From: Balneola sp. | GTDB lineage: Bacteria; Bacteroidota; Rhodothermia; Balneolales; Balneolaceae | Length of the DNA stretch: 64,000 nucleotides | Direction of reading: 5' to 3' | NCBI GenBank assembly: GCA_002696035.1 | Contig: NZQV01000002.1 | Coordinates: 1 to 64,000 of the forward strand | Part shown: piece by piece, positions 2,271 to 64,000 of the stretch | Layout: each line of letters starts with the position of its first letter | Position numbering within the stretch: the stretch's first letter is position 1 | Notes under the pieces: generated by a model | The model's input: the letters and a program-made list of their open reading frames with translations, nothing else | Told to the model about the DNA's origin: nothing | Databases searched by the model: none | Position numbers and translations under genes: made by a program

Positions 2271-2293
2271 AATACTTGTTCAAATGATATTCT

Positions 2294-2761: not shown

Positions 2762-2787
2762 GCTCGATTAATCTTAATTTCTTAGTG

Positions 2788-3162
2788 TTACCCTTTCGGC
2801 TTCTTGGTGCCATACAGACTACGGCTCTGGGTTCTACCCTCAACGCCCGCAGTATCTAATGTTCCACGTATAATATGATATCGAACACCTGGTAAATCTT
2901 TTACACGACCACCACGGATCAATACAATACTATGCTCCTGCAGGTTGTGACCTTCACCGGGAATGTAAGCCGAAACTTCAATTCCGTTGGTCAAACGTAC
3001 ACGAGCTACTTTACGCAATGCCGAATTCGGCTTTTTAGGCGTAGTTGTATAAACGCGAGTACAAACACCACGCTTCTGCGGACAATTCTGCAACGCAGGA
3101 GCAGTTGTTTTACTTACTTTGCTTTTTCTACCTTTTCGTATGAGTTGTTGTATAGTTGGCAC
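2788..3162 (-). CDS. rpsL: 30S ribosomal protein S12
   Basis: A 124-residue S12, part of the decoding centre and first gene of the str operon. [11 protein letters not shown] contains Lys43 and [10 protein letters not shown] contains Lys88. Both are wild-type residues whose substitution gives streptomycin resistance in other bacteria, so sensitivity at this locus is inferred. The short N-terminal form [12 protein letters not shown] is usual. It is transcribed leftward from the region shared with the divergent recG. Confidence 0.98.
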
Positions 3163-3202
3163 TGTTCATATGTTTGGTTATTGCCATCAAATCGAGAGCT
3201 TT

Positions 3203-3235
3203 CAAATATAGGGAAGGTTGCTATACGAATGCAAA
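3203..3235 (-). promoter_or_regulatory. Candidate promoter of the str operon
   Basis: Read on the minus strand, TATATTTG (3203-3210) matches the Bacteroidota -7 box TAnnTTTG. A TTTG (3232-3235) lies 21 bases upstream, two more than the usual 19. It sits ~40 bases upstream of the rpsL start. The longer spacer keeps confidence moderate. Confidence 0.4.
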
Positions 3236-3353
3236 ATATTTATCCGAATTATTTCCTTAATTTCTGAATACCCCCTCAAACAGGGTCATTTCATCAAAAT
3301 ATTCACAAAATATTGGTCTTTTTTAGATAGACTGATATATAACTTTATATCAC

Positions 3354-5423
3354 TTGAATTTAACCGATTTAGCCAATTTAAGTACCAAAAGACTAGAGGC
3401 CCTGCAGTCAGAAGGTGTTCATTCTGCAGAAGATCTGCTAAATTTTTTCCCCCGCAGATATCTTGATCGTAGTAATACTCAAAAAATGAAGGTCCTTCCC
3501 GGCTCAGGAGAAGAAGTTACGGTTGCCGGAGAAGTGGTTTCGGTTAATATGGTGGGGTATGGAAACAAGAAAAGACTGGAGGTCACTCTGAATGATGGCA
3601 CCGGCACCGTTAAAGGGGTATGGTTTCGCGGGGCAGGTTATTTTAGCAAGTTTTTCAAGAAGGGGGAAACGGTTGCTTTCTTTGGTCAGGCCAAACGGTA
3701 TGGCAAGAATATCAGTATTGCACATCCTGAAGTCGATAAAATATCATCAGCAGGAGACCTGGATGATTTTTCAAGGATCGTCCCCATTTATCCCGGCAGT
3801 AAAGCATTAAGTAAGGCACGCATCAACAGCAGCATGATCAGCAGCTGGATGAAAGAGATCTTGTCTTCGGAGCAGATCAATGAATTTCTGCCCGGCAAAC
3901 TTCTTTCTGAAATGAAATTCCCAGAGCGCATGCAAGCCTACCGGATGATCCACTTTCCTGAGTCTCACAATCAGCATAAAAATGCTTTGAACCGTTTCAA
4001 ATATGAGGAGTTGTTTTTATTTGAGCTTAGTATGGAGAAGATCAACTTCACCGTAAAAGAACGAGCAAACGGGCATGTGTTTAAAGAGATCGGGAATTAT
4101 ACATCTCGCTATTTCAATGAGCTTTTGCCTTTTGAGCTTACCGGTGGGCAGAAATCTGCCTTGGCTGAAGTCAAACAAGATGTGCGCTCCGGAAAACAGA
4201 TGAATCGACTAGTGCAGGGCGATGTGGGCGCTGGCAAAACCATCGTAGCCATTGGCGCTATGCTGATGGCTTTGGACAACGGATTCCAGGCTGCCTTCCT
4301 TGCCCCGACTGAAATTCTGGCTGAACAGCACTACCGAACACTTTCTGAACATCTTAAAGAACTGAATGTGAATGTCCGTTTGCTCATCGGTTCACAAAAA
4401 AAAGCCCTGCGGACTGATATTCTTACCGATGTGGAGGGTGGCAATGCACAGATCGTTGTGGGAACGCATGCCATCATTCAGGAACAAGTTCGGTTTCACA
4501 ATCTTGGACTTGCGGTTATTGATGAGCAACATCGGTTTGGGGTGAAGCAAAGAGCGGACCTACTGAATAAGGGGAGTCATCCGCATATGTTGGTAATGAG
4601 TGCGACTCCTATCCCCCGCTCATTGGCAATGACGGTTTATGCCGACCTGGATGTTTCCGTTATCAAAGACCTGCCTGCGGGTAGAAAGCTTATCAGAACT
4701 GCTATTCGCTCGCAGAAAAAACGAGAAGATGTAATGAATTTTGTCCGGCAGGAAGTGGAAGACGGCGGACAGATATATGTAGTATATCCGCTGGTGGAAG
4801 AATCGGAGGCGCTGGATCTAAAAGATGCCACGGCCGGCTTTGAAAAGCTTAAACAACGGTTTCCTGAATTTAAGATAGGTTTGCTTCACGGTAGAATGAA
4901 AACCGAGGAAAAGGAAACAGTCATGAGAAAATTCATCGATCATGACATTCATATTCTCGTTTCCACTACCGTGATAGAGGTGGGAGTAGATGTGGCCAAT
5001 GCATCCATCATGGTTATTGAGCATGCTGAGCGATTCGGACTTTCTCAGCTTCATCAACTCCGCGGGCGCATTGGCCGAGGTGAACGGCAGAGTTACTGCA
5101 TCCTGATGCCGGATGTGAAAGTGAGTAAATCCGGTGCTTTCCGACTTAAAACCATGGAAGAGACCAACGATGGATTTCGAATTGCTGAGGCTGATCTGAA
5201 ATTACGCGGCCCCGGAGATTTCCTAGGAACCAAACAAAGCGGGTTGCCCGATTTCAAGTTTGCAGATATAGTGGAAGACCAGTTCCTGCTGGCTCAAGCC
5301 AAAGAAAAAGCGAAATCAATATTGGAGGCTGACCCTGAATTACAATCTCCGGATCACCAAAACCTGGCCAGGGTATTTGCTCCTTACTTTGAAGAAAAGG
5401 TACAATTTTACGGAATGGGGTGA
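3354..5423 (+). CDS. recG: ATP-dependent DNA helicase RecG
   Basis: A 689-residue branch-migration helicase that regresses stalled forks and processes Holliday junctions. The N-terminal wedge/OB domain is followed by helicase motif I QGDVGAGKT (near residue 290), the DEQH-type box DEQHRFGVKQR (near 388), SATPIPRS, and the C-terminal LRGRIGRG and GPGDFLGTKQSG blocks typical of RecG. Length is normal. The apparent start is TTG at 3354 (MNLTDLANLSTKRLEALQ), with no obvious Shine-Dalgarno. It is divergent from rpsL and convergent with the E2 gene. Confidence 0.96.
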   Translation: MNLTDLANLSTKRLEALQSEGVHSAEDLLNFFPRRYLDRSNTQKMKVLPGSGEEVTVAGEVVSVNMVGYGNKKRLEVTLNDGTGTVKGVWFRGAGYFSKFFKKGETVAFFGQAKRYGKNISIAHPEVDKISSAGDLDDFSRIVPIYPGSKALSKARINSSMISSWMKEILSSEQINEFLPGKLLSEMKFPERMQAYRMIHFPESHNQHKNALNRFKYEELFLFELSMEKINFTVKERANGHVFKEIGNYTSRYFNELLPFELTGGQKSALAEVKQDVRSGKQMNRLVQGDVGAGKTIVAIGAMLMALDNGFQAAFLAPTEILAEQHYRTLSEHLKELNVNVRLLIGSQKKALRTDILTDVEGGNAQIVVGTHAIIQEQVRFHNLGLAVIDEQHRFGVKQRADLLNKGSHPHMLVMSATPIPRSLAMTVYADLDVSVIKDLPAGRKLIRTAIRSQKKREDVMNFVRQEVEDGGQIYVVYPLVEESEALDLKDATAGFEKLKQRFPEFKIGLLHGRMKTEEKETVMRKFIDHDIHILVSTTVIEVGVDVANASIMVIEHAERFGLSQLHQLRGRIGRGERQSYCILMPDVKVSKSGAFRLKTMEETNDGFRIAEADLKLRGPGDFLGTKQSGLPDFKFADIVEDQFLLAQAKEKAKSILEADPELQSPDHQNLARVFAPYFEEKVQFYGMG

Positions 5424-5570: not shown

Positions 5571-7343
5571 TTAGATAGAACGATCTGTGTCGAACTCTTC
5601 CAGGATCTGCTTGATGCGATTCAGGAAAGCCCCGCCGTGTGCACCGTCAATAATTCTATGATCATAACTCATGGAGAGATACATCATATGACGAATGGCT
5701 ATCACATCTTGTCCATCTACTTCTCGGACAACCGGGCGTTTTTCGATCACTCCCGTTCCAATGATCGCAACCTGTGGCTGATTTATGATCGGTGTTCCCA
5801 TCAGGTTTCCTACACTTCCGTAATTAGTGAGGGTGATAGTTCCGCCAACCAGATCGTCAGGACTTAGTTTCTTGCTGCGGGCTTTGTTTGCAACTTCGTT
5901 CACTGAGTTTGCAAGGCCTACCAGGTTTTTCTCCTGAGCCTTCTTGATAACCGGCACAATTAGTCCGCCTTCGCCGCCTTCACCAAGGGCTACCGCCAAA
6001 CCGAAATTGATATCTTTCTTCAGGTGGATCTCATCCCCAACAACAGAACTGTTGATCAGCGGATACTCCAGCATAGCATTGATGATGGCTTCCACAAACA
6101 GCGGTGTGAAGGTAAGCTTGGTTCCCGTTTTCTCCTGGAAAGCCTGCTTATGAGCATTTCTCCATTTCACCATGTTCGTTACATCCACTTCCGCAAAAGT
6201 AGTAACGTGTGCTGATGTCTGCTTGGATTTAACCATGTGCTCAGCAATCATCTTGCGCATGCGATCCATCTTGATCACTTCCACATCACCAGAAGGACTG
6301 TGTTTAACATCCAGCTGACCTGCAGAAATGGATCCATCAGAAGACTTCCCTGACGATGGCTTACTAAGACCGCCACCAGAAGAGGCTGCTTGTTTTTTCT
6401 GAGCCGGAGATGAAACCTTACCGGCTTTCTTATCTTCTACATAGGATAAAATATCTTGTTTGGAAACACGTCCGCTTTGCCCGGATCCCTCGATGCTTTC
6501 CAATTCTTGCTGAGAAATTCCCTCTTCCTTAGCAATAGAGCGAACAAGTGGAGAATAAAATCTTCCGTCACTGCCTACGCGCTGAGGATCTTCTCCTTCT
6601 GAAGTTCCATTGGAGGCTGAAGTTTCAGCCTGCTGACTTGCTTGCGATGAAGTTGACTCTTTCTTCTCCTCTTTTTTCGGAGCCGGAGATGAACTTCCTG
6701 CGGATGCCGTTGCTCCCTCACCCGTTGCTATAACAGCAATGGTCTGTCCTACTTCAATAGTGTCATTTTCTTCTGCGAGGATCTCAACCAGTGTCCCTGA
6801 TGCCGGAGAAGGAACTTCGCTGTCTACTTTATCGGTGGAGATCTCGAGCAGGGTTTCATCTTCCTCTACCTTATCGCCCACCTGTTTATTCCATCCAATT
6901 ACAGTAGCCTCCACAACCGACTCACCCATCTGAGGCATTTGCACCTCAATGCGCTCGCCTTCGTCTCCACCACCTGAAGCAGCAGGAGCAGATTCTTCCT
7001 GTGCTTCCGATTCCTGATCTTGTTCTTGCGATTCTTCTTCAGCAGGCTCTTCAGTTTCAGCCTCATCAGATCCACCGGAAGAAACATCACCGGCAGCATC
7101 GGCATCGGTCTCAATTATGGCGATCGGTTTACCGACTTCGATCACGTCCCCTTCTTCAGCTAAAATTTCTACGAGAACGCCGGCTTCGGGAGATGGCACT
7201 TCCGTATCCACTTTATCGGTGGCTACTTCGAGCAGGGTTTCATCCACTTCTACAGTGTCTCCCACACTCTTACTCCACTCAATAACTGTGCCTTCCATTA
7301 CCGATTCGCCCATCTGGGGCATCACTACTTCTACCTTCGCCAT
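5571..7343 (-). CDS. 2-oxoacid dehydrogenase E2 (dihydrolipoamide acyltransferase), two lipoyl domains
   Basis: A 590-residue acyltransferase core subunit of a 2-oxoglutarate, branched-chain or pyruvate dehydrogenase complex. Two lipoyl domains (about 1-80 and 130-210) carry the DKVD lysine, Lys44 in the first. They are joined by acidic and Ser/Gln/Ala-rich linkers to an E1/E3-binding domain (about 260-300, SPLVRSIAKEEGISQQELE) and a catalytic domain (about 355-590) ending in SYDHRIIDG with the active-site His. Lipoyl attachment would depend on lipB and lipA and on the E3 lpdA at 36.6-40.1 kb. No E1 gene is adjacent, so the substrate cannot be fixed; the catalytic domain resembles SucB and branched-chain E2 more than AceF. 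Confidence 0.93.
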   Translation of the reverse strand: MAKVEVVMPQMGESVMEGTVIEWSKSVGDTVEVDETLLEVATDKVDTEVPSPEAGVLVEILAEEGDVIEVGKPIAIIETDADAAGDVSSGGSDEAETEEPAEEESQEQDQESEAQEESAPAASGGGDEGERIEVQMPQMGESVVEATVIGWNKQVGDKVEEDETLLEISTDKVDSEVPSPASGTLVEILAEENDTIEVGQTIAVIATGEGATASAGSSSPAPKKEEKKESTSSQASQQAETSASNGTSEGEDPQRVGSDGRFYSPLVRSIAKEEGISQQELESIEGSGQSGRVSKQDILSYVEDKKAGKVSSPAQKKQAASSGGGLSKPSSGKSSDGSISAGQLDVKHSPSGDVEVIKMDRMRKMIAEHMVKSKQTSAHVTTFAEVDVTNMVKWRNAHKQAFQEKTGTKLTFTPLFVEAIINAMLEYPLINSSVVGDEIHLKKDINFGLAVALGEGGEGGLIVPVIKKAQEKNLVGLANSVNEVANKARSKKLSPDDLVGGTITLTNYGSVGNLMGTPIINQPQVAIIGTGVIEKRPVVREVDGQDVIAIRHMMYLSMSYDHRIIDGAHGGAFLNRIKQILEEFDTDRSI

Positions 7344-7611
7344 AAAATTGTATTATTTAAGTGCTCTAAAAGCATTTTTTTGAAGATTTATAAACGGCTC
7401 TAAAGTTCAGGATAATTCCAATTAGTTCAAAATAAGTATCGTTCCTTTAATTTTTGGAAAAGCGCTTTTTTACGCTCTTTTAAATTACACCCCAAAACTC
7501 TTGCAAGATGGTCGTCCGACAAATGAACCTTAGACAGAATATTTTCTGAAAAAAGCTTGGGGCGAAACTTCAACCCAACGAACAAATCTTTTTATAAAAT
7601 AAAGAAAGTCC
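7344..7611. other. Intergenic stretch without recognised features
   Basis: AT-rich sequence upstream of the leftward E2 gene. It presumably holds that gene's promoter, but no convincing TTTG-N19-TAnnTTTG pair was seen. A bare palindrome AAAAGCGCTTTT lies near 7459-7470 without a usable loop. No open frame of note. Confidence 0.5.
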
Positions 7612-7782
7612 TTGTCGTCATTTGCTCGGGTAATTCCGGTCACGCTAACTAGATCACCGCCCGGTCAAATGTATGAAGTGTTAGACGAACAAAAAGAACA
7701 ACTGAACATCCGTATTAAAGATGATCGGGGAAAAATCATCTGGCTTCCAAAATCTCATTTCGAGTTAGTGACTGAGGCTTAA
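7612..7782 (+). CDS. Possible small protein (56 aa from TTG, or 37 aa from ATG at 7669)
   Basis: A short open frame ending at the TAA at 7780-7782. From the ATG at 7669 it reads MYEVLDEQKEQLNIRIKDD and continues RGKIIWLPKSHFELVTEA. The frame is open back to 7603, reading ARVIPVTLTRSPPGQ before the ATG, so a TTG start at 7612 is possible. The pattern of short strands (YEVL, LNIRI, KIIWLPKSHF) resembles small SH3-like barrel proteins, but this is a weak likeness and no family is claimed. It precedes the 403-aa unknown gene by 60 bases on the same strand. Coding status rests only on the protein-like composition. Confidence 0.4.
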   Translation: MSSFARVIPVTLTRSPPGQMYEVLDEQKEQLNIRIKDDRGKIIWLPKSHFELVTEA

Positions 7783-7842
7783 TCACGATATCTTTCTTTT
7801 CTCCATATTGACTGATCACATTTTCATCAAACGCCATCTTCC

Positions 7843-9054
7843 GTGACTACCTCTTATCAAGAAATCAAACAAATTTGTTTACAGAATCAGCAACTCACTA
7901 AGCGACTAATTGATGAGTTTCTGCTGTATTATGCCGCCGACCGTTTTAAGCTGTATCGTGAGATGAACAAGGCTTTTGCGCGTTACCGCCATTTCACAAA
8001 GGATGCTCCCGAGTCGTGGATCAATACCATGAAGGGGCAATATATCGCGCATCGTATTTTTATGGAAGACGGGCTGATCAACCGGTTTATCAATCATCGC
8101 GCATTAGCTCACCTGGATGAGGAAGAGATGGCTTTTCTGCGAAGAAATCAGGCGAACCCGTGGCGATTTTCGTTTAGTGAAATTATTGATAATCCTGCGC
8201 CTGATTTTTTTGAGATAGAGGATGTTTTCACCGGAGAAAATCTCCTTCTTTACTCGCCGTCTACCTCAGAAATATTACAAGATCGTGATCCCCTGCTATG
8301 GTTTAACTTGCTTAGCTACAATGGCTCTTGCTACGAAAGCTATGGCGTCATTAACCCCTTCCAAAGTTTTGAGCCGGAAGATATCCTGTTTTATGCCTCG
8401 CAACTAAATCCAGATCAATGGATTGAGAATCCCAGTAAGCTGATGGAATTGGTTAGCAAAGATCCGGTTCCCTATATGCTTTTATTACTGAAATCGGAAT
8501 TGCCCCTGGTTTTTCAAGGAGACGATCAATTTGTGCAGAATACCGGGGAATTTCTGGATGATAGTTTTGAAAGTTCCGTTCTCAAAGATGCTTTTACCAT
8601 TGAATATGCTCACGATGTCTATCGCCTTTCACTAAAGGATCGGAGTGAATTTCCGCATTTCAGCGTGGCTTATTATGATGAAAGTGAACAGCTCTTGTTT
8701 TTATCGGCGACCACCGACCGTGGGTATGATGCTTTGGTGGATGCCTTGAACGACTGTGGCTACAATCTCCCCTATAACCCTGATTTCAGAGTGAACACGG
8801 CGATGATGAACACGGTTCAGGAAATCCTGAGAAAGGACATCAACCTGAATCCCTATGAAGATCTTTTTAAGAAGATGGACACCAAAGAGTCTGGAGAAGT
8901 GGACAACCTGAATAATATGCTGGCGGAGATTCTGCCAGATCTGAACGCGGGATTAAAACCGGATGCAAAAAAATTAGCCCAACAATTTAATGTAAATGAA
9001 GAAAATGCCCGGGAGCTTATTGATGAGCTTTGGAAGAAGTATGGGAATTTGTAG
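7843..9054 (+). CDS. Conserved-looking protein of unknown function, 403 aa
   Basis: An unrecognised soluble protein with no signal peptide or membrane segment. It starts at GTG 7843 (MTTSYQEIKQICLQNQQ); the next methionine is about 45 residues in. The N-terminal third is helical and rich in aromatic residues (FLLYYAADRFKLYREMNKAF). The middle is mixed alpha/beta and acidic. The last ~35 residues (PDAKKLAQQFNVNEENARE then LIDELWKKYG) look like a helix-turn-helix or similar small helical domain. It may pair with the small frame upstream. Function is not assigned. Confidence 0.8.
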   Translation: MTTSYQEIKQICLQNQQLTKRLIDEFLLYYAADRFKLYREMNKAFARYRHFTKDAPESWINTMKGQYIAHRIFMEDGLINRFINHRALAHLDEEEMAFLRRNQANPWRFSFSEIIDNPAPDFFEIEDVFTGENLLLYSPSTSEILQDRDPLLWFNLLSYNGSCYESYGVINPFQSFEPEDILFYASQLNPDQWIENPSKLMELVSKDPVPYMLLLLKSELPLVFQGDDQFVQNTGEFLDDSFESSVLKDAFTIEYAHDVYRLSLKDRSEFPHFSVAYYDESEQLLFLSATTDRGYDALVDALNDCGYNLPYNPDFRVNTAMMNTVQEILRKDINLNPYEDLFKKMDTKESGEVDNLNNMLAEILPDLNAGLKPDAKKLAQQFNVNEENARELIDELWKKYGNL

Positions 9055-9100
9055 ATCTAGCTACTTATTACAAAACTTTTCAGGCACTTTAAAAGCCTTG

Positions 9101-9733
9101 TTATTCAAACAATGCGAGGCTCTTTTTATAGTTTAACTCCTCGTGCACCTCTTCAAAGTCTTTTATATCACCAAACCATTTCATCGCTTCAGCTTTTCCA
9201 ATGTTCGTTAGTTTATCTAACACATAAGCATGCCAGCTACTAAATGGCCAATCATTCAAATTTCTGGTAAACCCATGATGAATTGGGTTGTTGTGAATGT
9301 AAGCTATTAAGTGGGTGAAGTATTTTTGGGAGTTGATGAGTTTTCGTTTGAAATTTGGAATGAATAGACTGCCTTTCCGATCGTATTTTTTATTGAAGGC
9401 CTGAGTGTATCCATTTAAAAGATGAGAAAATTGCCTGCTAATTACCGAAGGAAACCCTCCAAGGGTTTTGAACCCTTGGAGGGTTGGGTCTTTTTTCCTG
9501 TTTCGAATAAATTCCAACACCTCTCCCTCCCCTTTCACCCGAACCATTAAATGCAGATGATTCGGCATTAAGCAATAGGCAAAAGTGCCAACCACGGGGT
9601 GAATATGATGGAGGTATTTCTTTAGGAAATAATTGTAGTTCTCTTCGCTGCGAAAGAGATTCTCATCACCATTGGCATGCGTCCAGATGTGATATGTGTT
9701 TCCTGATTGAAGTAAAATTTGATTTTTCGACAT
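9101..9733 (-). CDS. REP-associated tyrosine transposase (RAYT, Y1/IS200-like)
   Basis: A 210-residue single-strand HUH nuclease of the Y1 transposase superfamily. The HUH motif is in CLMPNHLHLMV. Downstream NGYTQAFNKKYDRKGSLF and HNNPIHHGF are characteristic of this class, which is thought to act on REP-type hairpins. Length is normal. It starts MSKNQILLQSGNTYHIW. There are no flanking terminal repeats of an autonomous IS. Instead one REP-like hairpin lies just beyond its 5' end (9778-9810) and a perfect palindrome lies inside its reading frame (9453-9485). Confidence 0.9.
   Translation of the reverse strand: MSKNQILLQSGNTYHIWTHANGDENLFRSEENYNYFLKKYLHHIHPVVGTFAYCLMPNHLHLMVRVKGEGEVLEFIRNRKKDPTLQGFKTLGGFPSVISRQFSHLLNGYTQAFNKKYDRKGSLFIPNFKRKLINSQKYFTHLIAYIHNNPIHHGFTRNLNDWPFSSWHAYVLDKLTNIGKAEAMKWFGDIKDFEEVHEELNYKKSLALFE
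9453..9485. repeat. Perfect 15-bp-arm palindrome within the RAYT reading frame
   Basis: Arms AACCCTCCAAGGGTT (9453-9467) and its exact complement (9471-9485) enclose a 3-base TTG loop. The palindrome stays in frame and encodes part of DPTLQGFKTLGG in the transposase. It has the form of a REP hairpin placed in coding sequence. Confidence 0.85.
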
Positions 9734-42896: not shown

Positions 42897-43268
42897 ATGC
42901 AATTATCTCAAACTGAAGAAGAACTGATGCAGTACGTATGGAAGCTGGAAAAAGCTTTCATGAAAGACCTGCTGGATGAATATCCTGAACCCAAACCTGC
43001 CCCAACTACCGTAGCTACTTTGCTAAAACGCATGACTGAAAAGGGCTTTGTCGATTACGAACAAATGGGGCGGTCCCGACAATATTACCCGTTGGTGAAG
43101 AAATCAGATTACTTCTCGAAGCATGTAAATGGATTGATCAGGAAGTTTTTTGATAACTCGGCTTCACAATTTGCTTCTTTTTTTACCAAGGAAACCAAGC
43201 TTACTGAGGAGGAGCTGAAAGAATTAAAAGCTATTGTTGAAAAAGAAATTGAGAGGAAGAACCAATGA
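42897..43268 (+). CDS. BlaI/MecI-family repressor
   Basis: A 123-residue winged-helix repressor. MQLSQTEEELMQYVWKLEKA then PAPTTVATLLKRMTEKGFVD form the DNA-binding half; the C-terminal helices (FASFFTKETKLTEEELKELK) dimerise and hold the usual cleavage region. ATG at 42897, four bases after operator 2. It overlaps the M56 gene by 4 bases, the normal repressor-sensor pair. No beta-lactamase is adjacent, so the regulated response is unknown. Confidence 0.93.
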   Translation: MQLSQTEEELMQYVWKLEKAFMKDLLDEYPEPKPAPTTVATLLKRMTEKGFVDYEQMGRSRQYYPLVKKSDYFSKHVNGLIRKFFDNSASQFASFFTKETKLTEEELKELKAIVEKEIERKNQ

Positions 43269-45082
43269 TCACTTATCTATTCTACTCTTCAATTAGTTTG
43301 GCTTTATTACTACTGGTATATAGATTTCTGCTGGAGAAGGAAAAGCGATTTACTTTTAACAGGATATTTTTACTCTGGAGTCTCGTTTTCTCATTAACAA
43401 TTCCATTACTACCTGTTGGTATAGCTCCGATTGAAACGCAGTGGCACGATCTCTTCTCTTCGGGTGAGTACATTCCTTTGGCAAATACTCAACAGGTGAA
43501 AAGCATTAACCTAAATCCGGATTTTCAGCTTTCAAATGAGCTAAATAGGCCTTCCGAAAGTTCAAGTGAAATGCCCTTCCAGATTACATTTCTTATCTAT
43601 ATAACGGTATCAATTCTTTTATTTTTACGATTGGTACGAGCCCTTCATGAACTTCAGTCGAAGACCAATCGAGAGTCTGGGTACATTGAAAATGGCATCA
43701 AGATTGTGCTCCTAAACGGACAGGTTATACCTCACTCTTTTCTAAATACAGTTTTTGTCAACAAAAAGAAGTTTGAGCGAGGTGAAATACCTGAAGAGAT
43801 CCTGGCTCATGAAGTTGCCCACATCAAACAAATGCATTCGCTGGATATACTTTTTGTGGAGTGTTTAAAAATAATCTTTTGGTTCAATCCACTTCTATAT
43901 CTCTACAAGCATCTTATAGCACAAAATCATGAATACCTTGCGGATCAAGAGGTAATATCTAAAGGTACCGGAATCCAGCATTATCAAAGAATGCTTTTGA
44001 AAACGATGGAGGAAAAAACCAGGTATAGCTTAGCGAGCAGCTTAAATTTTTCCCTAACAAAACGCAGGCTACAAATGATGACTCAATCCAGAACAAAAGT
44101 GAAGTTTCTCCTCAAACTTGTAATGCTGGCACCACTATTTGCTGGATTATCACTGATGCTGGGATGTGAACCGGCATCTAATGAGACTTCTCCTGATGTT
44201 GACACATCCAGTGAACTTAGCATAGAAATTCTGGATGATAATGCCCTGATTGTAAATGAGAATAGTATGACTTTAGGTGAATTGGAACGTCTTTTGTCAG
44301 AAATGCCTGAAAGTCCAGAATTGGTCAGAATGAAAGTCAGCCCTGATGCTGAGTTTGGAGTTATAACGGATGTTCAGAGTACCCTGCGAAGGCATGAGGC
44401 CTTTAAGATTCAGTACTCATCCCAAAACAATAATTATGCAGAAGACTCCACTAAAGACAGTACCAAAATATCTGATTTTTATGAGCCTCATAATGGTCTT
44501 ATTCCTTCTAACCTAAGAATTGAAGCGCATCCTGAAGATGACCGTGTAGCATTAATAAAATTAATTCTTAGGGCAGATTCACCGGTTTTATTCCAGCTAT
44601 CCAATAATGACAATACATATACCATTGTGAATAAAGATTTACCGGCAGGAAATCATCAAGTTCAATTCGATTATTCAAACATTTCCAATGCTGACTTCAG
44701 TTTCAAATTCAAATCCAGGAACAATGATGATATTGAATTAAATGGCCCCTTTATTATTGATGGGAAACTTCAAACTATTGTTGATACACTAGCCTCGCCT
44801 GAGTCGGATAAAAAGATGTCTATGAATAGTGATGACGTTCAGGACCTGAAACCTTTAATGGATATGGCTCACAAAAATTGGCAACAAAAATGGGACGATT
44901 ATTGGGAGATAGAGCCAATTGAAGCTAACTTAGAGAAGTTAAAGCGCGCCTATTTCATAGCTAAGGAATACCATAAGATGCTTGGTGAAATTCAAAGTCG
45001 CTATTACAATGCGATTGGTGAAGCACAGCCACCTTTACCGCCCATTCCACCGGAGCCGGAGACGCGAATAGAAAACCAGTAG
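43265..45082 (+). CDS. M56-family (BlaR1-like) membrane metallopeptidase
   Basis: A 605-residue sensor peptidase. Membrane helices lie near 1-20, 35-55 and 95-115; the zinc motif HEVAHIKQMHSLD sits near 180 with the downstream Glu in NHEYLADQEV; a further helix is near 280-300. It should cleave BlaI when activated. The ~300-residue C-terminal part is not a penicillin-binding domain and is unrecognised, with a Pro-rich end (PPLPPIPPEPE). Right after the last helix, LSLMLGCEPASN resembles an internal lipobox. Confidence 0.9.
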   Translation: MITYLFYSSISLALLLLVYRFLLEKEKRFTFNRIFLLWSLVFSLTIPLLPVGIAPIETQWHDLFSSGEYIPLANTQQVKSINLNPDFQLSNELNRPSESSSEMPFQITFLIYITVSILLFLRLVRALHELQSKTNRESGYIENGIKIVLLNGQVIPHSFLNTVFVNKKKFERGEIPEEILAHEVAHIKQMHSLDILFVECLKIIFWFNPLLYLYKHLIAQNHEYLADQEVISKGTGIQHYQRMLLKTMEEKTRYSLASSLNFSLTKRRLQMMTQSRTKVKFLLKLVMLAPLFAGLSLMLGCEPASNETSPDVDTSSELSIEILDDNALIVNENSMTLGELERLLSEMPESPELVRMKVSPDAEFGVITDVQSTLRRHEAFKIQYSSQNNNYAEDSTKDSTKISDFYEPHNGLIPSNLRIEAHPEDDRVALIKLILRADSPVLFQLSNNDNTYTIVNKDLPAGNHQVQFDYSNISNADFSFKFKSRNNDDIELNGPFIIDGKLQTIVDTLASPESDKKMSMNSDDVQDLKPLMDMAHKNWQQKWDDYWEIEPIEANLEKLKRAYFIAKEYHKMLGEIQSRYYNAIGEAQPPLPPIPPEPETRIENQ

Positions 45083-50434: not shown

Positions 50435-50476
50435 GAATTGGTTCCGACGCAGAGCGTACGGAACCAGTTCTTTTTT
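50435..50476 (+). terminator. Terminator of gdhA built on a 26-nt family hairpin (copy 2)
   Basis: GAATTGGTTCCG and CGGAACCAGTTC form the stem, followed by T6 (50471-50476). The inner 26 bases (50440-50465) read on the minus strand as GGTTCC-GT-ACGCTCTGCGT-C-GGAACC, the same family as 14617, 56522 and 58796. Confidence 0.8.
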
Positions 50477-55203: not shown

Positions 55204-56328
55204 TTATGGCCGGAATTTAATATCTACTTTCTGGGTCGGAGATTGTTCTTTATTCCGGATGGCGAGCTGTTGCTCCATATTTCCGGTGGCTTCCATCAGG
55301 GCGGTTGCCGCAGGTGATGAACTGTCTTCCAGCACGATCGGTTTTCCGGAATCTCCGCCCTCACGTAAGGTCTGCTGAAGGGGTACTTCAGCCAGCACCG
55401 GAACATTCATTTCCTGTGCCAGCAGCGCAGCGCCGCCTTTACCAAAGATGTAATATTTTTTGTCTGGCATGTCCGGCGGAGTGAAGTAGGCCATATTTTC
55501 CACCATTCCCAAGACAGGCACATTCACTTTACCAAACATGGCTACCCCTTTACGGGCATCGTCCAGCGCCACGGTTTGCGGGGTTGATACAATTACGGCT
55601 CCGGTCAATGGCACGGTTTGCACAATGGTAAGCTGAATGTCGCCCGTTCCCGGAGGAAGGTCCAAAATCAGATAATCCAGCTCGCCCCATTCCACATCTG
55701 TCATGAACTGCTTGACGGCGCTTGTGGCCATCGGTCCGCGCCACACCATGGCCTGATCCACATCTACCAAAAACCCCATAGAAACCAGCTTGATGCCGTA
55801 TTTCTCATGAGGAACCAGTTTCTTTTTGGTGGTAATATTCGGGCGGTCGTGAATATTGAACATGGTAGGGATACTTGGTCCGTAGATATCGGTATCCATC
55901 AACCCAACTTTGTGACCTTTTTTAGCTAATGATGCTGCAATATTCACCGCGACAGTAGATTTCCCAACACCGCCTTTGCCCGATGCCACGGCAATGATAT
56001 TCTTCACGCCGGGCAGGATCTCCTGCTGTTGAGCCTGTTGCTGTCCCGGTTTCGAATCCTCAATTTCTTTCTTCTTGGAGAGATTCACGGCCATCTGAAT
56101 ATCCACAATGGCTTCCTTGTCGATGAATTTTTGAATGGCTTCTTCGCACTTTTCACGAAGCTGATCTTCCAGCGCCTCGTTCTTCTCAGGAAACTCGAGC
56201 GTAAACGACACATATTTATCCTGAACGATCACATCCTGCACCATATTGAGGGAAATGAGATCGCGTTGTTCGGAGGGGTGTAAAACCTGGCTGAGTGCTG
56301 ACTTAACCTGTTCTTTATTAATAGACAT
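55204..56328 (-). CDS. Mrp/ApbC/NBP35-family Fe-S carrier ATPase
   Basis: A 374-residue P-loop ATPase carrying Fe-S clusters. The N-terminal DUF59 (MIP18-like) domain covers ~1-85 (MSINKEQVKSALSQVLHPSE). The deviant Walker A is VASGKGGVGKSTVAVNIAA, with DTDIYGPSIPTMF and LDLPPGTGDIQLTIVQ. The CxxC motif that bridges clusters in many homologues was not found; only GMVENMAYFTPPDMPDKKYY stands at the usual place. Function in Fe-S delivery is therefore likely but may differ in mechanism. Confidence 0.92.
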   Translation of the reverse strand: MSINKEQVKSALSQVLHPSEQRDLISLNMVQDVIVQDKYVSFTLEFPEKNEALEDQLREKCEEAIQKFIDKEAIVDIQMAVNLSKKKEIEDSKPGQQQAQQQEILPGVKNIIAVASGKGGVGKSTVAVNIAASLAKKGHKVGLMDTDIYGPSIPTMFNIHDRPNITTKKKLVPHEKYGIKLVSMGFLVDVDQAMVWRGPMATSAVKQFMTDVEWGELDYLILDLPPGTGDIQLTIVQTVPLTGAVIVSTPQTVALDDARKGVAMFGKVNVPVLGMVENMAYFTPPDMPDKKYYIFGKGGAALLAQEMNVPVLAEVPLQQTLREGGDSGKPIVLEDSSSPAATALMEATGNMEQQLAIRNKEQSPTQKVDIKFRP

Positions 56329-56516
56329 GAATTATTTTGAACCTAATGTTGATGAACGGTCATACTTTTAATTTCGGTGCTAAAGATAAGAATTCTTATG
56401 GAGAATTAATTCCATGAACCAAGTGGTAAATCATCCGACATCTGCAAAGGAACGCGGATGACACGGATTGAGCGGATAGTCGTGGGTTTTGTGATTATTC
56501 AGATGATGGTGCAATA

Positions 56517-56720
56517 CAACTGGTTCCACTCGCTCTGCGTTGGAACCTCATTTTGGTGCTGTAAAAATCTGCGATCATAAGCATACATTTTCCTCGCAGA
56601 GTTATGCAGAGTTTTGGGAAAAGGGAATGTTCTCTCATGACTACTCAATCAGCATATATCAACATCTTTGGACCACCGATCCGGCAGGCATTCCGAACGT
56701 ATTGTTCGGAACGAGGGAAA
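56517..56720 (+). repeat. Flanking direct repeat, left copy (with 26-nt hairpin copy 3)
   Basis: Contains the hairpin GGTTCC-AC-TCGCTCTGCGT-T-GGAACC (56522-56547). After CCTCGCAGAGT comes an ~95-bp block (56622-56716): GGGAATGTTCT, GACTACTCAATCAGC, TATATCAACATCTTTGGACC, and hairpin CATTCCGAAC / GTTCGGAACGAGG (56689-56716). The same blocks in the same order recur at 58793-59054. Confidence 0.85.
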
Positions 56721-56734
56721 AATATCCCATCCCA

Positions 56735-57322
56735 CTAAGGATTTTTAAAATAAATAATCTTCGCAATTTGATGTGTTGCTAAGTTGAAATCGATAAGTAT
56801 TCCATCATAGTCATTATTAGAGCAATTAAACGTTACTACATAGTTTGGATCTATTGCTGGCTTGTAGATTATTTTAAGATTGCTTCCAAACTTTTGCTTT
56901 AGTTCTTCAAAAGAATCTCCCACCCTAATTTCTTTTCCTAAAATCTTTACCGGCCAGTAACTATTTGTGATTTCAATATTCGTTACCCGTTCAAACTCCG
57001 TATCAAAGGCCACGATATTACTACCAAACGCAAATAGCCTTTCCCGAGAAGTCTCATTGTTAGTTACTGATGTATTTGAACCCCACAATGATTGAACACT
57101 GCTATTGTTGCCATCTGTAGCATTTATCTGATTAACTGTATGACCTTTGTATGTAATCGAGTCGTAGGCACTGCATGAAATCAAATTCCTTCCATTTGGT
57201 TGGGTTTGAATTGGATTATTTATTGTATTAGGATCACCAACTTGTCCCTGTGCAAATATATTTGCTGAAATAAAAGCAACATTAGCAATCAAAAATATTA
57301 ATATGGTTTTCAATTTTTTCAT
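56735..57322 (-). CDS. Secreted protein of unknown function in the M23 cassette
   Basis: A 195-residue exported protein from ATG 57320-57322 (MKKLKTILIFLIANVAFISA). No family recognised. The mature part starts QGQVGDPNTINNPIQTQPNG. It has SCSAYDSITYKGHTVNQINA and ends GILIDFNLATHQIAKIIYF. The SYWPVKILGKEIRVGDSFEE then LKQKFGSNLKIIY stretch looks like a small globular repeat. AT-rich with many Asn codons, unlike neighbours. It lies 19 bases after the M23 gene, in an operon with it. Confidence 0.75.
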   Translation of the reverse strand: MKKLKTILIFLIANVAFISANIFAQGQVGDPNTINNPIQTQPNGRNLISCSAYDSITYKGHTVNQINATDGNNSSVQSLWGSNTSVTNNETSRERLFAFGSNIVAFDTEFERVTNIEITNSYWPVKILGKEIRVGDSFEELKQKFGSNLKIIYKPAIDPNYVVTFNCSNNDYDGILIDFNLATHQIAKIIYFKNP

Positions 57323-57341
57323 GGTTATAAGTTTAAAAATT

Positions 57342-58685
57342 TTAGCAATCAGTTCCAGAAATAGGGTTGCCATTAGAATCAAATTTTGTTGAATAAAATG
57401 TTTCAGGATTTAAAGGATTTCCATAATCAAGCCCTGTATCCCAACCAGAACCTGTTCGCTTTCTAATTATTATGTGAGAATGTATATCATCAGTGGCTCC
57501 TGTACGAATTGCATTTCTTAAATTACCACTTAAACCTTGAATTCCAATTACATCTCCAGCTTCTATCGAAGAGCCATTAGGTGGCCAGCTATCTTCTTGC
57601 AAATGGCCAAACTGCATTGTGTAATAAACGCCATTTTTCTGAAAGCGTATGGTTACATGGTGACCTAAATCTTCATCATAACCATAGGCCTCAATATTAC
57701 CACTAAACGGGGCAAACCATGGCTTTCCTATGTCGTTGTTTATGTCTAAGCCACTGTGAAACTGACTTCCCTGGCTCCGAGTATATCCTTTTCTCCCTCC
57801 ATTAATACCACTATTTGTCTGCTCAGCAATCCTTGGATTCTTGACAGGATTTCCCACGCAAGGTACTTCCCCATCTATACAATCTCCATTTGTATCTTCA
57901 ACCTGCCCTACAGGACAGCTTTCAGGGTCAGGATCGCTATCATTACCAGAACCTCCTCCAGGAGGATCATTTGGGTCTGGATCCTCATCACAACCACCAC
58001 CGGGGTAATCACAGCCACCAGTTCCTCCTCCGTCATCACCACCCGGATCTAATTGCTGTTCTTCACATACCCAAATGGTATAAAGATGCTCATTATTTAA
58101 TTCCGAATCCCACTCTTTCACTTCCTGCCAATAACAATGCATGGTTGTTTTCTGCTTGGAAGGAGAAGTGGTTTTCGTTTTTTTGTTTTCAGGTTTAAAT
58201 CCAAATTTACTAGCCCAATCCAAAATCGCTTGTTTTTGGCTCTTGGTATCTGGTATAATTGCCGCTACTATCCTATATGGTTCTTTGCTTTCTGGATCCA
58301 CAAAAATAACGTACTTAAATACCTTTTTCCTTGAAGAAGCTTTGATGTCCTCTTTATCTGGATTCAACCGGAAATATTTATACTTAAACTTTTTATTCTT
58401 TTTATAACTGATAAATCCTACATAAGGAGATTTCTTGTTCTTACTATAATTTAGCAACGTCTCTTTCAGAGCTTTCTTTTGCTCTTCACTAATGTCCTGA
58501 AAATTCACGCTCTTCAGTTTTTGCTCCTCGTTGAAGAAAGTCCCTCTCGATCCATTAGGAACAAGAGTTTCCCCCTCAAGAAGAAATACTGCTTCTTTAG
58601 ATGGAATCTTTTCATTAACCCCAGAATCTGCACAGCCCGTCAAAAGCAACACCCCGGCATAACATAATAGTAGTAAATATTTCAT
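57342..58685 (-). CDS. M23-family peptidase lipoprotein
   Basis: A 447-residue lipoprotein. Signal MKYLLLLCYAGVLLLTGCAD (lipobox LTGC). An unknown N-terminal domain (~30-190) is followed by a Gly/Asp/Pro-rich linker (~210-275, GGDDGGGTGGCDYPGGGCDE). The C-terminal M23/LytM domain has HSGLDINNDIG (HxxxD), MQFGHLQED and DDIHSHIIIRK (HxH). All zinc ligands are present, so an active peptidoglycan endopeptidase or bacteriocin-like lysin is plausible. AT-rich and repeat-flanked, suggesting transfer. Confidence 0.87.
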   Translation of the reverse strand: MKYLLLLCYAGVLLLTGCADSGVNEKIPSKEAVFLLEGETLVPNGSRGTFFNEEQKLKSVNFQDISEEQKKALKETLLNYSKNKKSPYVGFISYKKNKKFKYKYFRLNPDKEDIKASSRKKVFKYVIFVDPESKEPYRIVAAIIPDTKSQKQAILDWASKFGFKPENKKTKTTSPSKQKTTMHCYWQEVKEWDSELNNEHLYTIWVCEEQQLDPGGDDGGGTGGCDYPGGGCDEDPDPNDPPGGGSGNDSDPDPESCPVGQVEDTNGDCIDGEVPCVGNPVKNPRIAEQTNSGINGGRKGYTRSQGSQFHSGLDINNDIGKPWFAPFSGNIEAYGYDEDLGHHVTIRFQKNGVYYTMQFGHLQEDSWPPNGSSIEAGDVIGIQGLSGNLRNAIRTGATDDIHSHIIIRKRTGSGWDTGLDYGNPLNPETFYSTKFDSNGNPISGTDC

Positions 58686-58792
58686 GTGTTAGAACTCTAT
58701 TTGTCAATAATTTTTAGACAAGAGTCACACACACACACGATTTGTTACAAAAGTTTTGAAATTAATTTATCGGGCTTAAGATATTCCTTACG

Positions 58793-59054
58793 TCTGGTTC
58801 TACACGCTCTGCGTTGGAACCTCATTTTTCCTCGCAGATTTCCGCAGAGTTTGGCGCAGAGTTGCGCTGAGGGTTCAGTACCTCATTAATTTCAATCTGC
58901 GAAACTCAGCGTTTTCATCAGCGAGCTTCTGCGAGAAACAAGGGTTTTTGGAAAAGGGAATGTTCTTTCGCGACTACTCAATCAGCCTATATCAACATCT
59001 TTGGACCAGTGGTCCGGACAGGCATTCCGAACGAGCCGTTCGGAACGAGGACAA
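58793..59054 (+). repeat. Flanking direct repeat, right copy (with 26-nt hairpin copy 4)
   Basis: Contains GGTTCT-AC-ACGCTCTGCGT-T-GGAACC (58796-58821). After CCTCGCAGATT an extra ~90 bases interrupt the order, then GGGAATGTTCT, GACTACTCAATCAGC, TATATCAACATCTTTGGACC and hairpin CATTCCGAACG / CGTTCGGAACGAGG (59023-59050) follow. The extra part holds direct repeats of CTCAGCGT.TTCATCAGCGAG, also found at 59056-59083. Confidence 0.85.
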
Positions 59055-59320
59055 ACTCAGCGTATTCATCAGCGAGCCTCTGCGAGAAACAAGAATTTGT
59101 AAACGAGACGTAATCTAATTCGAATCCGTCATTCGGTTAATCGCTATTCTTTTCCTTTGATTTGCAATTTGTTTAACCCCACACAAACATTCCCAATAAA
59201 TACCTATGTTGTGCCGATTTTTGGTGAACAAACCCTTACCTTTCGCCTGATCGATATACAGGATCTCGGGGATCATCGGTGAACCGAATTGACGTAAACT
59301 CAGACCTTATAACTTCGTAC
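59055..59320. other. Intergenic region before gcvT
   Basis: After a further CTCAGCGTATTCATCAGCGA copy nothing gene-like is seen. A TACCTTTC box (59237-59244) resembles a -7 element but has no TTTG 19 bases before it. No glycine-riboswitch signature was found. Confidence 0.5.
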
Positions 59321-60421
59321 ATGTCAAAGAAAACGCCTTTTTACGCCATTCACGAAAATGCCGGCGCCAAGCTGGTAGACTTTGCCGGATTCCAAATGCC
59401 GGTTCAATATGATGGAATTAAAGCTGAACATGCTGCCGTTCGCGAGGCCGTGGGAATTTTTGATGTTTCTCATATGGGTGAATTCTACATCAGCGGTCCC
59501 GAAGCGCTCGACCTCCTGCAGATGGTGACCGTGAACGATGTTTCTAAATTGACCGAAGGCAAAGCGCAGTACACCTGCATGTGCTACGATGACGGCGGGA
59601 TCGTGGATGACCTGATCATTTATAAACTTTTTGATGACGCCGGATACATTGCCGTGGTAAACGCCTCCAATATTGAAAAGGACCTGAACTGGATCCTCGA
59701 TAACAATTCGTTTGATGCTGAGGTGAAAGATCAATCGGATGATACCTGCTTATTGGCCGTACAAGGACCCAAATCTGTGGAAACCCTGCAAAAGCTTACT
59801 GATCTGGATCTGAGTGATATTGGCTTTTATTCTTTCAAGATGGGAAATCTGGCCGGTATGGATAACGTAGTTTTTTCTGCCACGGGATACACCGGCGAAA
59901 AAGGATTTGAGCTGTATTTTGATAAAAATCATGTGGATCCTGAAAAAGTTTGGAATGCCATCATGGACGCCGGCGAGGAGTTTGGTATTGAACCTTGTGG
60001 ACTGGGAGCTCGCGATACGCTCCGATTGGAAATGGGTTTTGCGCTGTATGGCAACGACATCACCAAAGACACGCATCCGCTGGAGGCCCGCCTTGGCTGG
60101 ATCACCAAATTCGACAAAGGGGATTTCATCGGCAAGGAAGCCCTTCAACAGATAAAAGAAGCCGGTTTAAAAAGACAGCTTGTGGGCTTTGTGGTGGAAG
60201 GTGAACGCAACATTCCCCGCAAGGATTACATCATCCAAAACGATGCGGGAGAAGAAATTGGGGTTGTTACCAGCGGAACAATGTCCATCACTTTGGGTAA
60301 AGGTATAGGGATGGGTTATGTAGATACAAATTATAAAGATGAAGGAACCGAGATACAGATCGCCATTCGCAAAAAGCAGGCGAAGGCTACGGTTACCCGT
60401 CCTCCTTTCATAAAAAAATAA
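59321..60421 (+). CDS. gcvT: Aminomethyltransferase (glycine cleavage T protein)
   Basis: A 366-residue enzyme transferring the methylene group of aminomethyl-lipoyl GcvH to tetrahydrofolate. DVSHMGEFYISGP, GTVDD-like GGIVDDLIIYKL and GLGARDTLRLEMGFALYGND are family blocks, the last holding the folate-binding region. ATG 59321 (MSKKTPFYAIHENAGAKLVD) is preferred to the GTG 14 codons earlier. No gcvH or gcvP is adjacent. It heads a probable gcvT-comB-ftsK unit. Confidence 0.95.
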   Translation: MSKKTPFYAIHENAGAKLVDFAGFQMPVQYDGIKAEHAAVREAVGIFDVSHMGEFYISGPEALDLLQMVTVNDVSKLTEGKAQYTCMCYDDGGIVDDLIIYKLFDDAGYIAVVNASNIEKDLNWILDNNSFDAEVKDQSDDTCLLAVQGPKSVETLQKLTDLDLSDIGFYSFKMGNLAGMDNVVFSATGYTGEKGFELYFDKNHVDPEKVWNAIMDAGEEFGIEPCGLGARDTLRLEMGFALYGNDITKDTHPLEARLGWITKFDKGDFIGKEALQQIKEAGLKRQLVGFVVEGERNIPRKDYIIQNDAGEEIGVVTSGTMSITLGKGIGMGYVDTNYKDEGTEIQIAIRKKQAKATVTRPPFIKK

Positions 60422-63716: not shown

Positions 63717-63758
63717 GAGCTTTCAGCATTCAGACTTCAGCTCTCAGCGCACCAGAGC

Positions 63759-63786
63759 CCTCGTTCCGAGCGTCTCGTTCGGAATG
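63759..63786 (-). repeat. CATTCCGAACG-type hairpin, third copy
   Basis: CCTCGTTCCGAGCG and CGTTCGGAATG enclose TCT, the reverse complement form of the hairpins at 56689-56716 and 59023-59050, with one G:T pair. It sits between ftsK and the likely start of the LolA-like gene. A TCC-loop hairpin (GGAACC-TCC-GGTTCT, 63793-63807) follows at once. Confidence 0.7.
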
Positions 63787-63810
63787 AATGGCGGAACCTC
63801 CGGTTCTAAG

Positions 63811-64000
63811 GTGTTTATCAGGGGAGTTTTCCTTGTATTAGGATTTCTATTACTCTCAACGAACCTCCTAGCTCAATCTTCAACTTTTGATCAACTCAAG
63901 CAACGCTTTGAATCTGGTGAAGTTTTTGTAGCTGATTTTGATCACATTTACACCGATTCCTATACCGAAGAATCTACCAGCAGTTCAGGCAAGATATGGA
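63811..64000 (+). CDS. LolA-like outer-membrane lipoprotein carrier, N-terminal fragment
   Basis: The frame from GTG 63811 reads MFIRGVFLVLGFLLLSTNLL (signal peptide), then AQSSTFDQLKQRFESGEVFV and ends ...SSGKIW at the window edge. The FDQLKQRF...G.IW layout fits LolA-family periplasmic carriers; the gene also commonly follows ftsK in Bacteroidota. In-frame ATGs exist at 63784 and at 63706 (overlapping the ftsK stop), but these run through REP hairpins, so the start is uncertain. Confidence 0.72.
   Translation, partial: MFIRGVFLVLGFLLLSTNLLAQSSTFDQLKQRFESGEVFVADFDHIYTDSYTEESTSSSGKIW

What the first reader, a model, noticed from the sequence alone, without database searches (positions are those of the whole stretch)
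56517..59054. AT-rich M23 peptidase cassette between ~200-bp direct repeats
An M23 lipoprotein with a Gly/Asp/Pro linker and a secreted unknown partner form one operon with AT-rich, Asn-rich coding unlike the neighbours. Blocks in the same order flank both sides: the 26-nt hairpin, GGGAATGTTCT, GACTACTCAATCAGC, TATATCAACATCTTTGGACC, CATTCCGAACG hairpin. The pair could be a transferred lysin with a companion or protective protein. Direct repeats would let it excise by recombination.
Basis: partly seen in the sequence, partly recalled or inferred. Interest (0 to 1): 0.55.

Follow-up and report, generated by a model that had tools for sequence, protein, structure and literature searches.

The report
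Cell-wall toxin with its immunity gene
This small gene pair most likely makes a wall-cutting toxin anchored in the bacterium's outer membrane and a second protein that protects its owner, one of a family of toxins with exchangeable ends that related bacteria seem to use against each other.

Summary
In detail: a 447-aa M23 lipoprotein and a 195-aa secreted partner form an operon between mrp and gcvT, flanked by two collinear ~200-bp repeat arms. Comparison says the pair is a polymorphic toxin plus immunity protein: (i) the lipoprotein's N-domain also carries GH19, DUF6973 and the named toxin domain Tox-MPTase3 in relatives; (ii) a hinge 84-91% identical within the genus separates faster-changing N- and M23 domains; (iii) for 36 of 37 partner-family ORFs the nearest carrier upstream is an M23 toxin, and none was found at 26 ordinary M23 loci; (iv) seven M23 genes have two or three partner copies, and one partner stands alone; (v) tandem cassettes with a repeated linker occur in related bacteria. 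The partner folds confidently (pLDDT 90) as a tandem alpha/beta protein resembling YfeY and YjgB. The repeats are not the cause: two relatives with the pair or peptidase at this site lack them, gene-free sites keep none, and their pieces are hairpins scattered through the genus. Toxicity, immunity and delivery are inferred, not shown.

The parts
57342..58685 (-). M23 lipoprotein, predicted toxin (447 aa)
   Evidence: ORF; PF01551; profile match to lytM and lysostaphin structures; H310, D314, H361, H402, H404 invariant in the 11 aligned sequences
58632..58685 (-). Signal peptide and lipobox, ending LLTG|C18
   Evidence: Lipobox found by a script rule; C18 invariant in alignment A1
58191..58613 (-). 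N-terminal carrier domain, residues 25-165, also found on toxins with other C-domains
   Evidence: Profile A5: 18 of 124 order genomes at E<=0.01, weak matches included; other C-domains
57921..58190 (-). Variable Gly/Asp/Pro linker, residues 166-255
   Evidence: 25-62% pairwise identity for residues 166-250 among six proteins
57792..57920 (-). Conserved hinge, residues 256-298, containing PCVGNPVKNPRIA; probable recombination junction
   Evidence: 84, 86 and 91% identical to G001, G005 and G009, while the M23 parts are 33 (partial), 47 and 29%
57345..57791 (-). M23 catalytic domain, residues 299-447
   Evidence: 61% to G035 of another genus, 47% to G005 of the same genus
56735..57322 (-). Secreted partner, predicted periplasmic immunity protein (195 aa; signal peptide ending ..IFAQ)
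   Evidence: no Pfam, NCBIfam, PHROG or PADLOC match; AlphaFold2 pLDDT 90.3; association test
58720..58750 (-). Promoter-like TTGTAACA-N18-CTCTT whose spacer holds a (GT)6 tract
56515..56721 (+). Repeat arm A, mrp side
58789..59055 (+). Repeat arm B, gcvT side
55204..56328 (-). mrp, one border of the variable interval
59279..60421 (+). gcvT, other border of the variable interval

Best explanation
The pair is a polymorphic toxin with its immunity protein. The toxin is made as a lipoprotein and anchored by Cys18, probably in the outer membrane (inferred from the lipobox). Its N-domain and hinge carry an exchangeable C-terminal enzyme, here a LytM/lysostaphin-type M23 endopeptidase with a complete active site (shown by sequence). 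Carried to a neighbour by contact or in outer-membrane vesicles (route unknown), the M23 domain would cut peptide cross-links of the wall (inferred from the family). The partner is exported by its own signal peptide to the producer's periplasm (inferred) and would bind and block the cognate M23 domain, protecting the producer and its kin. Extra and solitary partner copies would be stockpiled immunity against other M23 variants (inferred from gene content). The mrp-gcvT gap is one of several spots where such cassettes are gained, exchanged and lost.
For: Carrier with swapped enzymes: besides M23, the N-domain precedes GH19 (L128, 26.7 bits, cut-off 25.5), Tox-MPTase3 PF15639 (L132, E 1.4e-17) and DUF6973 (L130, E 6.8e-25), and by motif only HExxH (L138; L129 and L131, both broken) and JAB-like HTHP domains (L127, L133, L134). 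Mosaic: hinge 84-91% to genus mates, M23 29-47%; the window's M23 is nearest to G035 of another genus (61%), whose N-domain is 28%. Specificity: for 36 of 37 partner-family ORFs the nearest carrier upstream (same strand, within 2.5 kb) is an M23 toxin, 25 of them adjacent; one is solitary; 0 of 26 ordinary M23 loci have one. Extra copies: 7 of the 25 M23 genes with an adjacent partner have 2-3. Solitary partner: G043 keeps only a partner beside mdh, where G035 has toxin plus two. Tandem cassettes with a repeated linker in L091, L094 and L095. Patchy distribution and low GC.
Against: No toxicity, binding or protection was measured here. No delivery machine was identified; the one T6SS gene searched (VipB) is absent. 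Of 36 distinct M23 matches above 60 bits, L173 has no same-strand ORF behind it, L178 sits before T6SS-like genes, and L180 and L181 have no profile-detected partner. That 60-bit cut does not by itself define the family: 16 of the 26 ordinary control M23 genes score 61-73 bits. The window's residues after the lipid cysteine (C-A-D-S-G) only weakly resemble the surface-export signal of other Bacteroidota. The full-length toxin model is poor (pLDDT 58), so the N-domain fold is unknown. Only one carrier was found in the window's genome, far fewer than the 25-80 sitAI loci reported per myxobacterial genome (PMC8546572, passage). The HExxH and JAB-like assignments rest on motifs read by eye.
Confidence: 0.75

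Rival explanations
1. Self wall-remodelling enzyme with a periplasmic brake: the M23 lipoprotein trims the cell's own wall and the partner is its regulator, not an immunity protein.
For: M23 enzymes with regulators are common in cell-wall growth (recalled). Weak NCBIfam matches of these proteins include housekeeping MepM, ShyA and ShyC.
Against: Absent from most relatives; other enzyme domains on the same carrier; tandem cassettes and a solitary partner; M23 divergence far above that of the hinge.
Confidence: 0.12
2. Lytic enzyme for scavenging or predation, with the partner as a folding or export chaperone carried along with it.
For: A secreted partner lies directly behind 25 of 36 M23 matches by profile. 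Weak PepSY-propeptide similarity of the partner profile, E 0.009.
Against: Two or three diverged copies per enzyme and a partner without enzyme are not expected of a chaperone; lipid anchoring is odd for a diffusible enzyme.
Confidence: 0.08
3. A mobile cassette moved by recombination between its flanking direct repeats.
For: Two collinear arms with a 110-nt block at 87%; AT-rich insert; gene-free sites in relatives.
Against: The pair in G005 and the peptidase in G009 stand at the same site without the arms, and gene-free sites show no arm. Arm pieces are interspersed hairpin repeats.
Confidence: 0.05

Closest known systems
SitA/SitI lipoprotein toxins of Myxococcus (PMC5562445: search listing only; PMC8546572: passages)
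   Same: Lipoprotein, conserved N-terminal part, modular C-terminal toxin, immunity gene in the operon, often on mobile DNA
   Different: SitA C-termini are nucleases that act in the cytoplasm, and delivery needs TraAB; here M23 and other enzymes with secreted partners. Homology of the carriers was not tested
TANFOR polymorphic toxins of Bacteroidetes (PMC7073777: outline and section 6)
   Same: Variable C-terminal toxins including wall hydrolases, downstream immunity genes
   Different: Described there as large proteins with an N-terminal TANFOR domain and with T9SS-secreted proteins enriched nearby; no such match came up for the window protein in NCBIfam, though that the library holds the TANFOR model is only recalled
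APD1/APD2, Microscilla-N and MafB-N carriers (PMC3482391: section 37 and passages)
   Same: Signal peptide (APD: and lipobox), lineage-specific N-domain, polymorphic C-termini
   Different: APD proteins are host-directed effectors; 'M23' has no occurrence in the held part of that paper; carrier homology not tested
LytM/lysostaphin-type M23 peptidases
   Same: Catalytic domain and active-site pattern
   Different: Lysostaphin immunity works by changing the wall (recalled); here a secreted protein partner is predicted
YfeY (2qzb), CAP-associated domains (4ifa, 4h0a) and YjgB/DUF4309 (4ygt)
   Same: Partner fold: VIA Z 8.9, 8.8, 8.8 and 7.6 over 120-126 aligned residues, rmsd 3.5-4.0
   Different: 8-13% identity; not known to me as immunity proteins (recalled); Z is little above the 7-8 that the tool calls typical of a best match

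Membership tests
Polymorphic toxin systems | Conserved N-terminal carrier with variable C-terminal toxin domains | tested here: met
   M23, GH19, Tox-MPTase3 and DUF6973 by Pfam, and two more kinds by motif, behind the N-domain; mosaic identities
Polymorphic toxin systems | Immunity gene directly downstream, specific to the toxin class | tested here: met
   Gene arrangement only: 36 of 37 partner-family ORFs have an M23 toxin as nearest upstream carrier; 0 of 26 ordinary M23 loci. Inhibition itself not testable
Polymorphic toxin systems | Orphan toxin cassettes and extra immunity genes | tested here: met
   Cassettes in L091, L094, L095; multiple partners
Polymorphic toxin systems | Toxicity neutralised by the cognate partner | not testable with these tools
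   Needs the bench
SitA/SitI | Lipoprotein toxin with its immunity gene in one operon | tested here: met
   Lipobox; gene order
SitA/SitI | Homologous escort domain (about 375 aa) and TraAB-dependent transfer | not tested
   No SitA or TraA comparison was made; the N-domain here is about 140 aa
TANFOR toxins | N-terminal TANFOR domain | tested here: inconclusive
   NCBIfam scan of the window protein lists only peptidoglycan peptidases; that the library contains the TANFOR model is recalled
T6SS effector | T6SS in the genome | tested here: inconclusive
   No VipB (PF05943) in the 97% complete genome; only this one model was used, and Bacteroidota T6SS can be divergent (recalled)
Peptidase family M23 | Pfam profile above cut-off and HxxxD / H / HxH active site | tested here: met
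   34.3 vs 28.7 bits; invariant H310, D314, H361, H402, H404; roles of the residues recalled

The most novel reading that the evidence does not exclude
An undescribed class of outer-membrane lipoprotein toxins in Bacteroidota carries exchangeable wall- and protein-cutting enzymes, has a structurally uniform periplasmic immunity superfamily for its M23 members, is delivered without a T6SS (by contact or vesicles), and may be switched by slippage of a GT tract in its promoter spacer.
Probability: 0.35. Interest if true: 0.78.

Novelty: new variant of a known kind. Interest (0 to 1): 0.6.

Why it matters
It would add a lipoprotein-borne polymorphic toxin family to Bacteroidota, with an unnamed immunity family that can be recognised from sequence and folded with confidence. 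It suggests a SitA-like strategy outside myxobacteria, aimed at the cell wall, and gives a tractable pair for asking how lipoproteins pass between Gram-negative cells. It also offers candidate protein inhibitors of M23 enzymes.

Tried and rejected
Direct-repeat excision: tested by looking for the arms at the same site in relatives; rejected.

Toxin-specific promoter regulon: TTGTAACA-N-CTCTT lies upstream of several carriers, but a genus search gave 90 matches in 10 genomes (14 for the reversed pattern), and in the window's genome they stand near mixed genes. It looks like a general promoter type; only the GT-tract spacer remains noteworthy.

T6SS delivery: no VipB. Defence system: no PADLOC match. 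Phage lysin: five PHROG matches to the M23 part, three of them named as a peptidase and one as an endolysin, none for the partner.

Partner as BLIP homologue: BLIP appears in Foldseek only at E 0.40; not claimed. Z 3.8 to the Bacteroides T6SS immunity protein BtiO is too weak to use.

N-domain fold: the full-length model is poor, so no fold search was run with it.

Dropped before counting: of the 26 places listed, G042 and G017 match only residues 1-60 and lie in proteins that look unrelated; G114, G048 and G052 (E 0.002-0.008) were not followed up. L091:3112 looks like GH19 by eye but has no Pfam match. The Roseivirga carriers (L094, L095) are not matched by the N-domain profile and are counted only for their cassettes.

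Full report
What is there. Between mrp (55204-56328, -) and gcvT (59279-60421, +) lies a two-gene operon on the minus strand: a 447-aa lipoprotein with a C-terminal M23 peptidase domain (57342-58685) and, 19 bp downstream, a 195-aa protein with a signal peptide (56735-57322). The peptidase profile matches lytM and lysostaphin structures, and positions H310, D314, H361, H402 and H404 are invariant in the 11 aligned sequences. The partner matches nothing in Pfam, NCBIfam, PHROGs or PADLOC. The host is a Balneolaceae by inference: relative G035, of the same family, has a contig of the same length, with the same match, as a Balneola sp. record.

The repeats. Arms 56515-56721 and 58789-59055 are collinear direct repeats with blocks of 35, 27 and 110 nt at 94, 89 and 87%, and the core motif occurs only there in the window. 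They do not explain the pair. In G005 (pair plus two more partner copies) and in G009 (peptidase beside gcvT, contig ending inside the gene) the site shows no arm, nor do the gene-free intervals of G001, G003, G004 and G006. Pieces of arm B recur in 8 of 10 genomes of the genus, own included, and at 50440-50469 and 63758-63818 of the window, as REP-like hairpins. A Y1/RAYT-like transposase gene at 9101-9733 (PF01797, 20.0 bits, below its cut-off of 23) could be their mobiliser; that link is a guess.

A variable site. Among nine relatives in the genus, the interval holds the pair in one (G005), the peptidase beside gcvT in one (G009), no gene in four (259-514 bp), other genes in two (G002, G007), and is cut by a contig end in one (G008). 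G001 has a pair about 45 kb away, beside an lspA-like gene (named by eye), with the peptidase broken by a frame change. Next to mdh (named by eye) G035 carries a toxin plus two partners, G043 a lone partner, and G031 a DUF6973 toxin. The pair has lower GC than its surroundings in 6 of 6 loci.

The N-domain is a carrier. A profile of the N-terminal part of seven proteins matched 18 of 124 genomes of the order at E<=0.01, some only weakly; G106 came. Reading the ORFs and scanning them, the N-domain precedes M23; GH19 (L128, just above its cut-off); Tox-MPTase3 (L132, E 1.4e-17; one of five families that PMC3482391 describes as exclusive to polymorphic toxins, passage); DUF6973 (L130, E 6.8e-25); and, by motif read by eye only, HExxH domains (L138; L129 and L131, each broken) and JAB-like HTHP domains (L134, L133; L127, whose N-domain holds a stop). 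One genome, G011, has three of these kinds at separate places. In L091 (Balneolaceae) and L094/L095 (Roseivirga) tandem cassettes repeat the linker with different enzymes (M23; GH19 by Pfam in L091:7616 and L095:6157; DUF6973 in L095:8047); most are seen to be followed by their own small secreted ORF, and what follows the last GH19 of L091 was not examined. The Roseivirga N-termini are not matched by the N-domain profile.

Mosaic structure. Between the window and its genus mates G001, G005 and G009 the hinge (residues 256-298) is 84, 86 and 91% identical, the N-domain 37, 37 and 40%, and the M23 part 33 (over 54 residues), 47 and 29%. The window's M23 part is nearest to G035 of another genus (61%), although that protein's N-domain is 28% and its hinge 63%. 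This is what exchange of toxin domains at a conserved junction leaves behind.

Partner and toxin go together. I searched 1694 ORFs of 57 loci (window, L067-L097, L127-L141, L172-L181) with a profile of 17 partners (A7). In non-duplicate loci 37 ORFs match at E<1e-3. For 36 the nearest carrier upstream on the same strand within 2.5 kb is an M23 toxin (25 adjacent, 11 further along); one (G043) is solitary. Of the 25 adjacent partners, 12 are in loci not used to build the profile (L067, L078, L082, L084, L085, two in L133, L135, L136, L138, L172, L174). Seven of the 25 M23 genes have two or three partner copies. Counting all M23 matches above 60 bits, after removing duplicates and merging one broken gene, gives 36 genes: 25 as above; six with a secreted ORF behind them seen by eye (L175, L176, L177, L179, L094:6222, and L095:2849, where it is truncated); one on a contig end (L081); and four without (L173; L178, before T6SS-like genes named by eye; L180 and L181, not inspected). 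Control: 26 loci of ordinary M23 genes gave no partner, N-domain or hinge-motif match, although 16 of them score 61-73 bits with the M23 profile; the hinge motif is in 32 of the 40 family ORFs, duplicates included. So the hinge, not the score alone, marks the family. All listed partners but one short ORF (L175) have a strongly hydrophobic stretch near the start, as in a signal peptide.

Spread. A profile of the hinge plus M23 region matched 240 of 394 genomes of the phylum at E<=1e-12, but 17 listed matches exceed 80 bits, and the shorter matches below that are ordinary M23 genes as far as I looked.

Partner structure. AlphaFold2 on A7 gave pLDDT 90.3 and pTM 0.85, with two alpha/beta halves by my reading of the secondary structure. 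Foldseek's best PDB hit is 4ifa (E 4.4e-4; TM 0.43 by query). VIA-align gives YfeY Z 8.9 (rmsd 4.0, 121 aligned), 4h0a 8.8, 4ifa 8.8 and YjgB 7.6. These are moderate and show no function. The toxin model is poor outside the M23 part.

How it probably works. Shown: gene order, different enzymes on one carrier, enzyme-specific partners, extra and solitary partners, complete M23 active site, signal-like sequences. Inferred: lipoprotein anchoring, transfer to a neighbour, wall cleavage, inhibition by the partner. The residues after the lipid cysteine in some other members (CEKDD in L096 and L173, CQKDD in L093) fit the K-(D/E)2 signal cited in PMC6222051 (passages), which reports that such a signal couples surface exposure to vesicle packing in Bacteroides; the window's CADSG fits poorly. 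No VipB was found in the genome.

Literature. Searches of the held open-access library showed no description of this lipoprotein carrier or of the M23-specific partner among the papers listed; most subscription papers are not in that library. PMC12419801 was seen in passages and PMC5080379 only in a listing.

A promoter oddity. TTGTAACA-N-CTCTT precedes several carriers. In the genus there are 90 matches in 10 genomes against 14 for the reversed pattern; 67 of the 90 have a 16-nt spacer by hand count. Upstream of the toxin the spacer holds a GT tract: N18 in the window and G005, N14 in G001. One unit less or more would give the common spacing, so slippage could switch expression. This is a hypothesis.

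Noticed in passing
58720-58750 (-): Promoter-like TTGTAACA-N18-CTCTT with a (GT)6 tract in the spacer; G005 also N18, G001 N14 with a shorter tract, commonest spacing in the genus N16: possible slippage switch.
   Followed up: partly
9101-9733 (-): Y1/RAYT-like transposase gene (PF01797, below cut-off); REP-like hairpins at 50440-50469, 56515-56721, 58789-59055 and 63758-63818 may be its substrates.
   Followed up: partly
L078 (G001:C1:1692000-1710000), 7542-9479: Toxin pair whose M23 gene is broken by a frame change, beside an lspA-like gene; the partner frame is open.
   Followed up: no
L070 (G007:C2:247000-259500), 6317-9333: In G007 the mrp-gcvT interval holds two similar neighbouring ORFs (183 and 189 aa, signal-like start) beside a 610-aa ORF: perhaps another multi-copy immunity set.
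   Followed up: no
L092, L093, L096, L172-L174: Members in other Bacteroidota have N-terminal regions not matched by the N-domain profile in front of the same hinge and M23 domain, so more than one carrier type seems to exist.
   Followed up: no
L178 (G432:C1:335000-342000), 1391-4099: A distant M23 relative lies in front of a TssK-like gene (named by eye), suggesting a T6SS-linked M23 protein.
   Followed up: no
43265-45082 (+): 605-aa BlaR1-like M56 peptidase (PF05569), second lowest in GC of the 40 ORFs of 150 aa or more.
   Followed up: no
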